34,996 nt of DNA from Deltaproteobacteria bacterium (lineage in GTDB: Bacteria > Lernaellota > Lernaellaia > Lernaellales > Lernaellaceae): positions 7,613 to 42,608 of the forward strand of contig PMZC01000052.1 in NCBI GenBank assembly GCA_003170555.1, read 5' to 3'. Below, piece after piece: positions 7,912 to 13,207 of this stretch (position 1 is the stretch's first letter; the number at the start of each line of letters is the position of its first letter). Made by a program: the position numbers and the translations under genes. The notes under the pieces were generated by a model. That model was not told the origin of the DNA. It did no database searches and worked only from the letters and a program-made list of their open reading frames with translations.

Positions 7912-9708
7912 TTACTTCCAGGCGCCGTAGATCGCCAGCCGATGACCCGCGGCGCCGAGCTCGGCCAGCACGACGGCGTAATTGGTCGCGGTGTCATACA
8001 GGCGCACCTGGCCGCCCTGGGTGTCGGTCGACTGGCGCAGCTCGCAAATTTCCGGGCGCCCGTCGTTGTCGAAATCCCACGTCGAGCACGGAAACGCGGT
8101 GACGCCGGCGGGCATATCTTCCTGATGCAGCGGCGCGGCGTGGTCGCCGGCGAATACCGCCCAAGCCGAGTGGATGGTCGACGGCGCCGAGCCTTCGGCG
8201 GTGAGCGCGTACGCCAGCAGCGCGGGATCGGCGAGGGGGCTCAGGTACAACGACCAGCCGCCGGCGGTGAGCAAGCCGCCTGCGGGCAGCGGCATGTCGT
8301 AATAGAACCCGGCCGGCTGGAGATCGGTTCCATACAAATCAATATGCAGCGCGCCGCTGACATCGGTGGAGAAGGGCACGATGGCGAACTCCTGCTCGCC
8401 GTGGCCGCGCAAATCAACCGCGGCGGCGAGCCAGGGTTCGACGGTCCAGGCTACCGGATAATACAGACCTGACGCCAAACCTGACGCGACCTGCTGCAGG
8501 GCGAAATTGTCGCTGTTCGGCCCGACCCACAGCGACGGCGCGCCGCCGGCGTCGGAACCCCACAGCACCACATCGGGCAGCTCATCGCCGTCGAGGCTCA
8601 TCGAAACCACGCCACTGATCGCGGTGATATTCGCGAGCGTACCTTGCGCCAACGTCGCGCCGCCGCGGTCGAACAAGACGAAGCGCGAGCCGGATGAATC
8701 GGCTTTGGGGTACGCCACGAACCCGGCGCAGGTGCGGTCGTCCGGCGAGCGCACCATCAGTCCCGCCGAGCTCAAAGCGGCCTGGCGCAGATCGAGCGGA
8801 CCGAAATCGCCGACCGCGTGGCCGCCGCGGTCGATCCACTGCGCGCGCCACTGCGGGCTGTTCGTGTCGTATAGATCGTATCGCTCGAGCAGAAACGCAT
8901 CGGGTCCGCTCGCGTCGCCGCAGGCGGAGCCCACCGCGCCGGAAAAATTGACGCCGTGCAGCGCCAGCCCTTCGCCGTTTCCGCCGTTGATCGTCCACAA
9001 CTCGTCGTAGCCGTTGGCGGCGTCGATCGCCTTCAGCGATCCGCTGTGACCGTCGTCGATCGGCCGCGAAGAAAGCAGCAGGTCGGGCCGCCCGTCGCCG
9101 GTGATGTCGAGGTTCGGGTACGCGAAAACGTATTCGTTGTTCAGCCAGCCGGTGTCGTAGGCGACGGTGAAGCCCGGCCCGTCGAACACGATGACGCGGC
9201 CCTTGGTGACGACCGTCGATCCGTTGAGGTCGATGTACTGCCGCTGGCTGATTACCTCGCAGCGGCCGTCGCCGTCGAGGTCGGCGAGATAGTGGTAGCC
9301 GAAACCGTAAGCGCCGAGCGCGACCGGATCGATAACGTGCACGACGGCGCCGTCAACGGTCTTCACCGTGACCTTGACGTTCATCTGCCCGCCGTCCGTG
9401 TAATGCTCTTCGAGCAAATATTCCGGGCCGTCGCCCGTGATGTCGCACGGCGTTTGCAAGCCGTAGTACGGCGCGGTGTCGTCGTCGCTCGTGTCGTCGT
9501 CGACATCGTCGTCTATGTCGTCATCGACATCGTCGTCGGCGTCGTCATCGAGATCGTCGTCGCTCGAATCGTCATCCGCGTCGTCGTCGACCTGATCGTC
9601 GTCGGCGTCGTCATCGCTCGACGAACCGGCGCCGCCTCCGCCGCTCGAACACGCCGCGCACAGGCAAAGCAGCGCCGCGAAGATCATTACCCAATACGGT
9701 CTCTTCAT
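7912..9708 (-). CDS. Large Asp-linker lipoprotein with FG-GAP/VCBS-type repeats
   Basis: A predicted exported lipoprotein of 598 residues. The ATG at 9708 gives a signal peptide with a lipobox ending near Cys20 (LCAAC). A short Gly/Ser run follows, then an Asp-rich linker of about 55 residues built from DDD plus A, S, V, I or T. The rest resembles an integrin-type FG-GAP/VCBS propeller. Calcium-loop motifs recur: DLDGDGRCEVI, DITGDGRPDLLL, SLDGDELPDVVLW and DFDNDGRPEIC. The region before the first of these, PCDITGDGPEYLLEE, also fits the pattern. No catalytic motif is visible. The linker is encoded by a GAC-rich quasi-repeat at 9477-9620 that may be prone to slippage. The likely role is a surface-exposed binding or structural protein, held off the membrane by the charged linker. 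Confidence 0.82.
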   Translation of the reverse strand: MKRPYWVMIFAALLCLCAACSSGGGGAGSSSDDDADDDQVDDDADDDSSDDDLDDDADDDVDDDIDDDVDDDTSDDDTAPYYGLQTPCDITGDGPEYLLEEHYTDGGQMNVKVTVKTVDGAVVHVIDPVALGAYGFGYHYLADLDGDGRCEVISQRQYIDLNGSTVVTKGRVIVFDGPGFTVAYDTGWLNNEYVFAYPNLDITGDGRPDLLLSSRPIDDGHSGSLKAIDAANGYDELWTINGGNGEGLALHGVNFSGAVGSACGDASGPDAFLLERYDLYDTNSPQWRAQWIDRGGHAVGDFGPLDLRQAALSSAGLMVRSPDDRTCAGFVAYPKADSSGSRFVLFDRGGATLAQGTLANITAISGVVSMSLDGDELPDVVLWGSDAGGAPSLWVGPNSDNFALQQVASGLASGLYYPVAWTVEPWLAAAVDLRGHGEQEFAIVPFSTDVSGALHIDLYGTDLQPAGFYYDMPLPAGGLLTAGGWSLYLSPLADPALLAYALTAEGSAPSTIHSAWAVFAGDHAAPLHQEDMPAGVTAFPCSTWDFDNDGRPEICELRQSTDTQGGQVRLYDTATNYAVVLAELGAAGHRLAIYGAWK

Positions 9709-10091: not shown

Positions 10092-11720
10092 TTACCGCCG
10101 CCGAAAAATCTCCACCAGGGCGGGAGTCTGATCCGGCGGCGGAAGCGTCTCGGTCATGAATTTCGTCTGCCGTTCGCCGACCACAATCACCGCGGCCTCG
10201 CGCACGTATTGCGCGGCGATCATCTTCACCGTCTCGTTCTGCAAAAACTTCGGCGCCCGCTCATTGAGGTAAAACGACGGACCGATGTTGACCGCCACGA
10301 TGTAACGCGGATTGTTGCGCTGCACTTCCGCCAGCGCCTGCCGCTGCCATTCGAGCGCGCGCGGGTGCGTGCCGCCGAGCGGATAGGTGAAGACGAACCG
10401 CGTCGCGCTGCGCCGCCGCGCGTGAAAAAGAAACTCGCCCTCCGTGCCGAACACGAACACCGTTTCGTCGGGGGTCGTATGGGCCGCGAGGTAATGGCCG
10501 ACGGCCTCGCCTTCCATGAAGGGGTTGAGCCCGTAGACCAGGCGCGCCAATTGCGGACCGGCGAGGTACGACCGGGCGTCGAGCACAATCGGGTAAATCG
10601 TGACCAGCATCAGAATCATTCCGATAGCGGCCCATTTCGACGCGAGGTTTACGTGACGCGCGTCGATCGCGTCGATGATCCGACTCACGCCGATCGCCGC
10701 CAGCAGACCCACGGCCGGCAGGCATTGTTGAAAGTAGTGGCCGGTCCAGCGGCCGGACGCCGAAACGCCGACGAACGACGACAGCATCCAAACCAGCGGG
10801 AAAAGGCGCGCCAGCGGCGCACGCGACCGCGCCAGGCCGACGGCGCCGACTCCGGCCGCGAGCCAGATGGCCCAATCGCGGAGCAGCAGGCCGCGAAAGA
10901 CGACGCGGTAAAGCAGCGTTTGGATGCGTGCCGCGGCCGATAAGTCGGTCGAGTATTGCAGGTTGTAGGTGAACGCCCAGAAGACCATCTCGCGCGCCGC
11001 GCCCCACCACGCGAAGAGCGCTACGCACAGGCCAATCACGGCGACGAAACCGACGCCCGCCGCGATGCCGCGCGCGCATTTCGTGCGCCACGATCCTTCG
11101 CCGACGGCGATGACGAACGCGATCGGCAAGGCCTCGGTCAGCGCGACCGGCTTGATGAGCACCGCGGCGCCGAGCAAGACGCCGCAAAGCAAATACGACC
11201 ACCAGCCGCGTGACGCCCGGCCAAAGGGAAGACAAAGAAACGCGCCGAGAATGAATGGCATCATGACCATTTCGGCGTTGAGCGTGAAGCCGAGATAGCG
11301 CGGCGCGACCATCAACAGCGTGGTGACGGCGACAGCGAGGCCGGCGACGCGCGCGCCGTATGCGCGACGGACGAAGCGCCATAACAGCAGCGCGGTGAGC
11401 AGCGCGACGGCGAGACCCGCGAGGCGAATCGCTTCCACGCTGCGGCCGAATTGCAGGATCAGCGCATAGGCCGCGAAGACGCCCGGCGGTTTGGTTTCCA
11501 GCGCGTGCACATACGGCGCCTGGCCTTGCCGCCATTGGTCGGCGATATACGCGTAACCGCCTTCGTCGCGTTCCAGCGGAACCGCGATCAGCAGCAGGCG
11601 CAACACGATCATCAGCGCGACCGCCGCCAGCGCGAGCGCCCACCAACGGCGCGCCGGGACGCCGGCGTCTTCCCGCTCATACCAGTTCAGCAGGAAGCAG
11701 CCGTCAGATACACTGGGCAT
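10092..11720 (-). CDS. GT39/ArnT-type membrane glycosyltransferase
   Basis: A polytopic membrane protein of 542 residues with the layout of the PMT/ArnT (GT-C fold) superfamily. These enzymes use polyprenyl-phosphate sugars to glycosylate proteins or lipids on the periplasmic face. The first transmembrane helix (about 24-48) is followed by the key acidic pair Asp52-Glu53 in ERDEGGYAYIADQWRQGQAPYVHALETKPPG, the expected first periplasmic loop. About ten further hydrophobic segments run to residue 400, and a soluble C-terminal domain follows. The ATG at 11720 was chosen because it has AAGG six bases upstream; the frame open to 11996 shadows the Cys-rich gene. The start overlaps the end of that gene by 17 bases, so the two are probably cotranscribed. 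Donor and acceptor are unknown. Confidence 0.83.
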   Translation of the reverse strand: MPSVSDGCFLLNWYEREDAGVPARRWWALALAAVALMIVLRLLLIAVPLERDEGGYAYIADQWRQGQAPYVHALETKPPGVFAAYALILQFGRSVEAIRLAGLAVALLTALLLWRFVRRAYGARVAGLAVAVTTLLMVAPRYLGFTLNAEMVMMPFILGAFLCLPFGRASRGWWSYLLCGVLLGAAVLIKPVALTEALPIAFVIAVGEGSWRTKCARGIAAGVGFVAVIGLCVALFAWWGAAREMVFWAFTYNLQYSTDLSAAARIQTLLYRVVFRGLLLRDWAIWLAAGVGAVGLARSRAPLARLFPLVWMLSSFVGVSASGRWTGHYFQQCLPAVGLLAAIGVSRIIDAIDARHVNLASKWAAIGMILMLVTIYPIVLDARSYLAGPQLARLVYGLNPFMEGEAVGHYLAAHTTPDETVFVFGTEGEFLFHARRRSATRFVFTYPLGGTHPRALEWQRQALAEVQRNNPRYIVAVNIGPSFYLNERAPKFLQNETVKMIAAQYVREAAVIVVGERQTKFMTETLPPPDQTPALVEIFRRR

Positions 11721-12192
11721 AGCAGGCCTTGGTTTTAGGTATGCAATTGTTGCGGTAGCAATTCCAGTCGCCGCCGCAGACGTCGTAGCATTTCTGGTCG
11801 ACGGCGTCGCATTGCGCCAGGCAATCTTGGTCCCAACCGCACGCCGCCTGGCACTGCGGCAAACCGGCGTCGCACTCTTTGTCGCAATCGTGTCGGCCGC
11901 CGCACGCCTGGTAGCACAGCAGGTACAGCGTGATGCAGCCGTTGCACGCGGCGGAGCAGTCGGACCATTCCTGATGGCAATTGTTCTGGCACACACCCTC
12001 CGGCGCGTCGCAGGCGGCGACGCAGTCGAAGTCGGCGAGTTTGCAGTCGCGGTCGCAAGCGCAGGCCGTCGGCGAGATGTTGGAGAAATCGGGCAGGCCG
12101 CCGGCGTCGGTCGCTTCTTTTTTCTTTTGGCCGGTGGAGCAGGCGACGACGAGCACGGCGCAGCATATTGCCAGGAAAAATTTCGCGCGCAT
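11704..12192 (-). CDS. Cys-rich lipoprotein with repeated twin CX3C motifs
   Basis: An exported lipoprotein of 162 residues. The ATG at 12192 has GGAGGG upstream. The signal peptide ends at lipobox Cys18 (LVVAC), followed by a charged linker. The mature part contains 24 further cysteines in about 120 residues. They are arranged mostly as CX3C-X6-CX3C units, for example CVAACDAPEGVCQNNC and CLAQCDAVDQKCYDVC, with one X9 and one CX4C variant. Twin CX3C pairs in short helices are what small disulfide-stapled helical hairpins look like, so a ladder of four or five hairpins is a reasonable prediction. I recognise no family. Metal binding or a redox role is also possible. It is transcribed into the GT39-type gene, with a 17-base overlap. 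Confidence 0.8.
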   Translation of the reverse strand: MRAKFFLAICCAVLVVACSTGQKKKEATDAGGLPDFSNISPTACACDRDCKLADFDCVAACDAPEGVCQNNCHQEWSDCSAACNGCITLYLLCYQACGGRHDCDKECDAGLPQCQAACGWDQDCLAQCDAVDQKCYDVCGGDWNCYRNNCIPKTKACYAQCI

Positions 12193-12268
12193 GATCCCTC
12201 CGCGTTTTCGACGTTAGTGGCGTCGCGTCGGTTTTGTCAACGCGGGCGCGACGTGTTAAAGAGGAGCG

Positions 12269-13207
12269 ATGCGTAACCTGCTGGTGCGCCGGAGCAATCG
12301 TCGCAAGCTGTTCGCGGTCGCCGCGGTGGTGCTGAGCCTCGTCGCGTTCACGGTGGCGCTCGAAACCGGACTGCGCACGCTGGCCTGGTGGTCGCTGCGG
12401 CACAATCCGAACCGGCACGTGGACCTGCGGCACGCGAACTACGTCATCGTCTGCACCGGGGACAGCCACACCTTCGGCAAGGGAGCGCCGCCGGGTTATG
12501 ACTATCCCAGCCAACTCGCCAAGCGTTTGCCGGAAGCGCACCGCGGTCTGCGCTTCGCCGTCGTCAACCTGGGTCACGCCGGCAGCAACAGCAGCGAGTC
12601 GGCGAACCGCGCGATCGAATTTCTGGCGACCGTGCCGCGCGGCCCCGACGTCATCATCTTCAACGCCGGCAAAAACAACGACCACAACTTCGCCGAAGCG
12701 CGCATCCTGCCCGCCGAAGTGGGCCGCCTCGGATTCAGCGGGCAGGTCAAATACCTGCTGGCCAACAGCCGCGCGTTTCGGCTCGGGCAGATCAGCGTCG
12801 CGCGCCTGCAGCAACTCGTCGAGATGGAGCCGACGACGCAAAGCATGCGCTGGAACAAGGTGCTGGATATCCAAGGCCAGGCCGAACAGGAACTGCTGCG
12901 CTCCTGGATCCGCCGCGACGTGGAGGTGCTGCTCGAGAAGACCGCGCCGCGCGGCGCGCGCATCGTGCTGCTCAACTACTGGCATCCGGTGGACGCGGTC
13001 GACCAGGTGTTCACCGACCTGAGTCACCGCGACCGCGTGACCTTTCTCGACGCGCGGGGTTTCGGCTACCGGGTGAGCGGCGGCATGCGTAAGATGCAGA
13101 GCCTGATCTCGACCGACTATCATCCGAACGAGTACGGCTATGCGGTCATCGCGCGCCTGGTGGAAAAGGGGCTCGAAGCGAACCATCTGATTCCGCCGCC
13201 GGATTGA
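12269..13207 (+). CDS. Membrane-anchored SGNH/GDSL hydrolase
   Basis: A predicted esterase or acyl-hydrolase of 312 residues. An N-terminal transmembrane segment (about 14-32) after a very basic start (RNLLVRRSNRRK) places the domain in the periplasm. SGNH blocks are visible: the nucleophile in VCTGDSHTFGKG, Gly in NLGHAGSNSSES, Asn in IIFNAGKNNDHN, and the Asp-His pair in STDYHPNEYGYAVIA. Members of this family act on acylated polysaccharides, lipids or peptidoglycan; the substrate here is unknown. The ATG at 12269 follows AGAGGAG closely. It is divergent from the Cys-rich lipoprotein, sharing a 76-bp promoter region, and sits near GT39- and GT2-type enzymes. This suggests cell-surface carbohydrate remodelling. 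Confidence 0.82.
   Translation: MRNLLVRRSNRRKLFAVAAVVLSLVAFTVALETGLRTLAWWSLRHNPNRHVDLRHANYVIVCTGDSHTFGKGAPPGYDYPSQLAKRLPEAHRGLRFAVVNLGHAGSNSSESANRAIEFLATVPRGPDVIIFNAGKNNDHNFAEARILPAEVGRLGFSGQVKYLLANSRAFRLGQISVARLQQLVEMEPTTQSMRWNKVLDIQGQAEQELLRSWIRRDVEVLLEKTAPRGARIVLLNYWHPVDAVDQVFTDLSHRDRVTFLDARGFGYRVSGGMRKMQSLISTDYHPNEYGYAVIARLVEKGLEANHLIPPPD

What the first reader, a model, noticed from the sequence alone, without database searches (positions are those of the whole stretch)
11704..12192. Lipoprotein built from repeated twin CX3C units
The protein has 24 cysteines in about 120 mature residues, mostly CX3C-X6-CX3C. This is consistent with a stack of disulfide-stapled helical hairpins or a metal- or redox-active surface protein. 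I do not know a bacterial family with this layout. It is cotranscribed with a GT39-type glycosyltransferase that might act on it.
Basis: partly seen in the sequence, partly recalled or inferred. Interest (0 to 1): 0.62.

Follow-up and report, generated by a model that had tools for sequence, protein, structure and literature searches.

The report
Bacterial lipoprotein of disulfide-stapled helical hairpins
A cysteine-packed surface-type lipoprotein turns out to belong to an unnamed bacterial protein family built from small paired helices that are probably riveted together by ladders of disulfide bonds; what it does in the cell is not yet known.

Summary
In detail: window 11704-12192 (-) encodes a 162-aa lipoprotein with 24 Cys in its last ~120 residues and five exact CX3CX6CX3C stretches (20,000 shuffles gave at most three). 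No significant Pfam, NCBIfam, PHROG or PDB sequence match. The Cys spacing, not the sequence, is conserved: scanning for it gave 42 convincing relatives among 176 pattern loci; a profile matched 5 of 7 own-phylum genomes and 60 of 282 genomes of another phylum. The unit CX3CX6CX3CGX4CX3CX6CX3C is predicted as an antiparallel helical hairpin (AF2 pLDDT 96). Units that lost exactly two Cys lost predicted ladder partners (1-37, 5-33, 12-26, 16-22) in 11 of 17 cases, 2.7 expected, which favours a disulfide ladder over metal thiolates. Best reading: about three such hairpins on a lipid anchor, a rigid scaffold with freely varying faces. The GT39 partnership is not supported: no second PMT_2 near 8 own-phylum loci, and 76 PMT_2 matches in this genome. 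Nearest known architecture: neurotoxin B-IV-type hairpin (weak fold match, homology not shown). Function is inferred. Against: no VKOR or DsbB found in the own genome.

The parts
11704..12192 (-). Cys-rich lipoprotein gene, 162 aa
   Evidence: ORF and translation; ribosome-binding-like GGAGGG at 12196-12201; GC3 0.80
12142..12192 (-). signal peptide, residues 1-17, ending in a lipobox before Cys18
   Evidence: sequence MRAKFFLAICCAVLVVA|C; type read by eye, no signal predictor run
12139..12141 (-). Cys18, predicted lipidated residue
   Evidence: lipobox VVAC by inspection
12064..12138 (-). linker without Cys, residues 19-43
11944..12057 (-). hairpin 1, residues 46-83: complete 8-Cys unit with a 6-residue turn; predicted pairs 46-83, 50-79, 57-72, 61-68
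   Evidence: template scan; AF2 confidence below 50 over most of this stretch
11839..11937 (-). hairpin 2, residues 86-118: 7 of 8 template Cys (position 82 is Ala); predicted pairs 86-114, 93-107, 97-103
   Evidence: template scan; helices in AF2 model
11710..11823 (-). hairpin 3, residues 124-161: second helix shifted by one residue (Cys145 instead of 146)
   Evidence: template scan; helices in AF2 model
11776..11886 (-). alternative register, residues 103-139: also a complete 8-Cys unit with the canonical CG turn
   Evidence: template scan; the stretch to which relatives aligned in A3
10092..11720 (-). downstream GT39-like (PMT_2) membrane glycosyltransferase gene, overlapping the lipoprotein gene by 17 nt; probably same transcript, no evidence of a functional link
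   Evidence: PF13231; start checked

Best explanation
It is an exported, lipid-anchored protein whose Cys-rich part is a row of about three antiparallel alpha-helical hairpins. Each hairpin is riveted by a ladder of up to four disulfides between facing helices (positions 1-37, 5-33, 12-26, 16-22 of a 37-residue unit, turn CGx[DN]xxC). Shown here: the framework, its recurrence in otherwise dissimilar proteins, the predicted hairpin of a relative's unit, and the tendency of predicted partner Cys to be lost together. Inferred: that the bonds form in the cell, and that the protein works as a rigid, protease-resistant surface or periplasmic scaffold in which disulfides replace a hydrophobic core and the outer faces are free to vary for binding or shielding.
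For: Cys framework far above chance. The same unit in 42 of 176 pattern loci after a filter for few extra Cys, and further lipoproteins in the own phylum by profile (read). In the 42 units, D or N at position 19 in 31 of 42 and near absence of Pro inside the helices were not part of the search pattern. AF2 of the unit with 40 rows: helices 2-18 and 22-39, pLDDT 95.8, pTM 0.70. AF2 of the window protein: helices at mature residues 59-79, 83-101, 105-123, 126-144. The four Cys of a helix fall within a 60-degree face. Co-loss: 11 of 17 two-Cys-loss units lose a ladder pair, marginal-shuffle mean 2.7, 0 of 20,000 shuffles reach it; 7 of 9 when units with an extra Cys are excluded; the ladder is the best of 24 cross-helix matchings. 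Cys count of the mature part is even in 54 of 73 relatives (starts and cleavage set by rule of thumb, and the selection of 7- and 8-Cys units, mostly 8, itself favours even).
Against: Neither VKOR nor DsbB was found in the own genome (84% complete), nor in two own-phylum genomes at 98-99% completeness; VKOR was in 3 of 7 and DsbB in 1 of 7, and two of the VKOR carriers had no profile match to the unit. AF2 of the window protein is poor overall (pLDDT 63.7, pTM 0.39; first 59 mature residues below 50). 6 of 17 co-losses do not fit the ladder, and 6 of the 11 that fit are the outer pair 1-37, which end effects could favour; without that pair 5 of 11 fit, binomial P 0.004. Hairpins 2 and 3 of the window protein are imperfect and a second register is possible. 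No experiment, localisation or function is known.
Confidence: 0.6

Rival explanations
1. Metal store or metal carrier: the Cys face of the helices binds Cu(I) or another soft metal as thiolates, in the manner of the exported copper storage protein Csp1.
For: Many CX3C motifs on helices in an exported protein. Csp1-type proteins are exported four-helix bundles that bind Cu(I) through Cys (PMC7558416, passages seen). No VKOR or DsbB found in the own genome.
Against: No Pfam match at E up to 10. Two-Cys losses pair across helices (11 of 17) rather than within a CX3C (0 of 17 lost 1+5, 12+16, 22+26 or 33+37). No Met or His column stands out in the 42 units.
Confidence: 0.13
2. Redox-active or vanabin-like protein: some disulfides cycle and reduce or bind metal ions at the surface.
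For: Vanabins have 18 Cys in nine disulfides, some redox-reversible, and reduce V(V) (PMC9486056, passages seen). Vanabin2 is among the six weak Foldseek hits, Z 3.0.
Against: The fold match is weak (TM 0.46 by query, E 9.3). The Lys/Arg metal sites reported for Vanabin2 have no conserved counterpart among the 42 units.
Confidence: 0.08
3. Diversifying antagonism peptide or binding module: small secreted members act on other cells, as alpha-hairpinins or nemertean B toxins do, and the lipoprotein is a surface-held version.
For: Only Cys and turn residues are conserved while faces vary. Many relatives are single-unit exported proteins of 40-80 mature residues. The B-IV toxin is the best Foldseek match, itself weak.
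Against: No immunity or export gene is recurrent among 130 neighbour proteins. The window protein is anchored and large. Fold likeness says nothing about activity.
Confidence: 0.1
4. Substrate of a modifying enzyme: glycosylated by the adjacent GT39-like enzyme, or Cys cross-linked by a radical SAM enzyme as the name of TIGR04117 proposes for CXXX-repeat targets.
For: 17-nt gene overlap with PMT_2. Two relatives hit TIGR04117 weakly (E 0.016 and 0.024).
Against: No second PMT_2 among 60 neighbour proteins of the window and 7 other own-phylum loci, with 76 matches genome-wide. TIGR04117 scores are about 15 bits against a cut-off of 50, and the window protein has no hit. Radical SAM is not among families matched by 2 or more neighbours.
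Confidence: 0.06

Closest known systems
Nemertean neurotoxin B-IV (PDB 1vib), helical hairpin with four disulfides
   Same: Two antiparallel helices cross-linked by disulfides (PMC6410017, passages); CX3CX6C spacing aligned by the profile (E 1.8); VIA Z 4.0, rmsd 1.9 over 40 residues
   Different: Animal toxin of 55 residues, single unit, no lipid anchor; sequence match not significant; Foldseek E 5.1
Vanabins of ascidians
   Same: Cys-rich protein with many disulfides (18 Cys, nine bonds; PMC9486056 passages)
   Different: Animal, metal-binding; fold match to the unit weak
Plant alpha-hairpinins
   Same: Helix-loop-helix with a fixed Cys motif (PMC11591084, start of abstract in search listing)
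   Different: Four Cys per peptide (same abstract); here eight in a unit and tandem units on a lipoprotein
Copper storage proteins (Csp1/Csp3)
   Same: Helical bacterial protein with Cys along helices; Csp1 is exported (PMC7558416 passages)
   Different: Four-helix bundle with Cu(I) thiolates in its core; no sequence match here
NCBIfam TIGR04117, Cys-Xaa-Xaa-Xaa repeat radical SAM target
   Same: CXXX repeats; two relatives hit it weakly
   Different: Far below cut-off; no radical SAM partner seen

Membership tests
Neurotoxin B-IV-like helical hairpin | antiparallel helical hairpin cross-linked by four disulfides | tested here: inconclusive
   AF2 hairpin for the 8-Cys unit of a relative, fold match TM 0.69/0.54 but E 5.1, Z 4.0; disulfides inferred from co-loss only
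Neurotoxin B-IV-like helical hairpin | significant sequence relationship | tested here: not met
   profile hit E 1.8; window protein itself no such hit up to E 10
Copper storage protein / Cys-rich four-helix copper-binding family | match to a Pfam model of that family | tested here: not met
   window protein 0 Pfam families at E up to 10
Copper storage protein / Cys-rich four-helix copper-binding family | Cu(I) binding by Cys thiolates | not testable with these tools
   needs purified protein
Vanabin | 18-Cys, nine-disulfide bow-shaped fold | tested here: inconclusive
   unit model to 1vfi: E 9.3, Z 3.0 over 41 residues; whole-protein model too poor to judge
alpha-hairpinin | four Cys per peptide | tested here: not met
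   units carry eight Cys; window protein 24 in its core
TIGR04117 CXXX repeat radical SAM target | score above the NCBIfam cut-off (50 bits) | tested here: not met
   window protein no hit; relatives 15.3 and 14.7 bits
TIGR04117 CXXX repeat radical SAM target | radical SAM gene next to it | tested here: inconclusive
   none among 10 window proteins scanned; not among families with 2 or more members, but single matches beyond the 25 listed families cannot be excluded there
Unnamed bacterial 8-Cys helical-hairpin family (defined here) | CX3CX6CX3C, short turn, CX3CX6CX3C in an exported protein | tested here: met
   two complete units in the window protein, residues 46-83 and 103-139; lipobox

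The most novel reading that the evidence does not exclude
Bacteria of several phyla use an undescribed fold that resembles an animal toxin hairpin by convergence: a core-less helical hairpin held by a four-rung disulfide ladder. It is a diversifying surface scaffold, deployed either as small secreted single units or as tandem arrays on lipoproteins, and one small phylum carries several paralogues per genome and oxidises them without recognisable DsbB or VKOR enzymes.
Probability: 0.35. Interest if true: 0.65.

Novelty: new variant of a known kind. Interest (0 to 1): 0.47.

Why it matters
The unit escapes Pfam and NCBIfam, presumably because almost nothing but Cys and a turn is conserved, yet its spacing recurs in exported proteins of several phyla. 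If the ladder is real, it is a bacterial counterpart of disulfide-laddered animal hairpins, a ready scaffold for binders, and a demanding substrate for disulfide formation in genomes where no DsbB or VKOR was found.

Tried and rejected
Ordinary sequence searches: tblastn-type search of the own phylum found only the gene itself. In 290 relatives the rows at E 0.01-1 were short partial matches, several with stops inside, and were not pursued beyond a Cys count. Plasmids: none. Viral contigs by peptide pattern: none. PHROGs: no hit for the window protein. Best PDB sequence hit of the unit profile was beta-defensin 106 at E 0.087, taken as a chance match of Cys and Gly.

Pattern scans: most of the 176 loci are TGC/TTG microsatellites, out-of-frame matches or Cys-saturated frames; 42 were kept by the rule stated (at most 9 Cys in the 37-residue unit, under 16% Cys in the frame). 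The reversed-pattern control gave many matches in the GC-rich own-phylum genomes, so the DNA pattern alone proves nothing; the open frame, signal peptide and turn residues do the work.

GT39 partnership: rejected as above. In one search, 130 of 134 neighbour proteins were scanned (the four of L223 were left out). Both neighbour surveys list only the 25 most frequent families. A GDSL/SGNH neighbour recurs at 2 of 8 own-phylum loci (window and L246 by position), but the genome has 52 such matches and the orientations differ; left as a lead.

Whole-protein fold search: 66 weak hits, mostly long helical proteins, uninformative because the model is poor. A2 used 40 of the 42 units (L076 and L223 dropped); A3 used the window protein and 29 of those 40. 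Literature: the listings showed no paper on this bacterial unit; that holds only for these terms and this open-licence library. The hits were not used, as the organism of the window is not established.

Full report
What is in the sequence. The ORF at 11704-12192 on the minus strand encodes 162 residues: a signal peptide ending in a lipobox (VVAC, lipid Cys at 18, read by eye), a 25-residue linker without Cys, and a Cys-rich part with 24 Cys between residues 44 and 161. The Cys spacing follows 3,6,3,5 or 3,6,3,6, a period near 21. CX3CX6CX3C occurs five times in the last 122 residues, while 20,000 shuffles of the same residues never gave more than three. A GGAGGG lies just upstream of the ATG. 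The gene has no match in Pfam up to E 10, only a below-cut-off hit over its signal region in NCBIfam, none in PHROGs, none in the plasmid collection, and no meaningful PDB sequence hit. A search of the 7 held genomes of its phylum with the protein found only itself.

The family is defined by Cys spacing. Because sequence searches failed, I searched DNA for the Cys framework. A six-Cys pattern found, besides chance hits, Cys-rich exported-type proteins at three further loci, in the own genome, G001 and G003. Of these 176 loci, 42 carry the unit in an open frame with few extra Cys. Of these 42, 29 have titles: 11 Myxococcota, 7 Acidobacteriota, 3 Lysobacterales and 8 others, including one archaeal and one Patescibacteria record (grouping by me from the titles); 9 had no title printed and 4 are viral contigs. 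A profile of 40 of the units (A2; the window protein is not in it) matched 5 of 7 own-phylum genomes at E up to 0.1, with six matches in the own genome, two of them in the window gene. Reading these loci gave further lipoproteins, several with long Asp-rich linkers after the lipobox. At E up to 0.001, 6 of 290 genomes matched, 4 of them among the 7 of the own phylum. In the unnamed phylum of G252, 60 of 282 genomes matched at E up to 0.01.

The fold. In the 42 units, position 17 is Gly by search design. Position 19 is Asp or Asn in 31 of 42, positions 9 and 30 are hydrophobic in about half, and Pro is nearly absent within both Cys-bearing segments. This places the turn at CGx[DN]xxC and puts each X6 inside a helix. 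AlphaFold2 on the unit with 40 rows gave helices 2-18 and 22-39, mean pLDDT 95.8, pTM 0.70. On an ideal helix the four Cys lie within 60 degrees, so each helix presents one Cys face to a single partner. In the antiparallel hairpin the facing pairs are 1-37, 5-33, 12-26 and 16-22 (inference; no model coordinates could be read). The window protein itself modelled poorly (pLDDT 63.7, pTM 0.39), with helices at mature residues 59-79, 83-101, 105-123 and 126-144 and nothing reliable before residue 60. Template scanning finds two complete eight-Cys units, residues 46-83 and 103-139. These cannot both be single hairpins of one simple three-hairpin row; the simplest non-overlapping reading is 46-83, 86-118 and 124-161, which makes eleven bonds and leaves Cys44 and Cys118 for a possible twelfth. 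The register of the last two hairpins is not settled.

Test of the disulfide ladder. If the bonds are real, partners should be lost together. From the family loci I collected 118 distinct units allowing 3 to 9 residues in the turn and at most one extra Cys. Of these, 92 have all eight Cys, 9 have seven and 17 have six. Of the 17, 11 lost a ladder pair: 1-37 six times, 16-22 three times, 5-33 once and 12-26 once. Shuffling the missing positions with their own frequencies gives 2.7 on average, and 0 of 20,000 shuffles reach 11. With no extra Cys in the unit, the count is 7 of 9 (mean 1.3, 1 of 20,000). Among the 24 ways of matching the two helices the ladder scores highest, with the next at 9. 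Six of 17 do not fit, and without the outermost pair it is 5 of 11 (binomial P 0.004). None lost both Cys of one CX3C, as one might expect if CX3C were a metal site. Mature Cys counts were even in 54 of 73 relatives whose start and cleavage could be guessed; 17 of 90 frames without a usable start, signal or end were left out, and the selection for (mostly eight-Cys) units biases this towards even.

Results against. VKOR was found in 3 of 7 own-phylum genomes and DsbB in 1 of 7; neither was in the own genome (84% complete), nor in G002 (99%) or G004 (98%), which also had profile matches to the unit, while two VKOR carriers (G005, G006) had none. The bonds may therefore form by another enzyme or without one, or may not form.

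Neighbours. The PMT_2 gene (10092-11720) starts inside the last codons of the lipoprotein gene, so the two are likely cotranscribed. But PMT_2 was not matched by a second member among 60 neighbour proteins from the window and seven other own-phylum loci, is not among families with two or more members in 130 neighbours of wider relatives, and has 76 matches in this genome. No neighbour family was conserved; protein kinase domains were the most frequent (6 of 130).

Comparison with known kinds. By Foldseek the nearest solved structure is neurotoxin B-IV (E 5.1, TM 0.69/0.54; VIA Z 4.0, rmsd 1.9 over 40 residues). Several unrelated chains score as high by VIA (up to Z 5.0), so the fold match by itself is of a common arrangement. 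What is specific is the combination of hairpin and cross-helix Cys pairs, described for B-IV in PMC6410017 (passages). Vanabin2 follows at Z 3.0. Neither is a demonstrated relative. The unit works like a disulfide-laddered hairpin; membership in any named family is not shown.

Verdict. The function is inferred: a rigid, lipid-anchored scaffold whose variable faces bind or shield something. The finding is a new variant of a known architecture and an unnamed bacterial family rather than a new kind of system.

Noticed in passing
window 7912-9708 (-); L052, L247, L248, L249, L250: Lipoproteins of this phylum often carry a long Asp-rich linker right after the lipid Cys, including several hairpin lipoproteins and the neighbour gene at 7912-9708; it may be a surface-localisation signal.
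   Followed up: no
own genome G000, 76 places: PMT_2 (GT39-like) glycosyltransferase matches number 76 in a 4.66-Mb genome, a striking expansion.
   Followed up: partly
window 12269-13207 (+) and L246:3328-4380 (-): A GDSL/SGNH hydrolase gene sits next to two of the own-genome hairpin lipoproteins, though in different orientation, in a genome with 52 such matches.
   Followed up: partly
L092, frame with the unit: An alphaproteobacterial protein with a prepilin-like N-terminus (GFSLIEVAIAL) carries an 8-Cys unit, suggesting a pilus-borne hairpin.
   Followed up: no
G005 and G006: The two own-family genomes with a VKOR gene have no profile match to the hairpin unit, while the own genome has the unit and no VKOR or DsbB match.
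   Followed up: partly
G503:C380:802-1296: One frame of 293 aa holds six overlapping or tandem profile matches (a seventh in that genome lies on contig C218), i.e. a long hairpin array.
   Followed up: no
L053:8180-9307, L248:7456-8505: Genes next to two hairpin lipoprotein genes encode other Cys-containing lipoprotein-like proteins (19 and 18 Cys) not analysed further.
   Followed up: no
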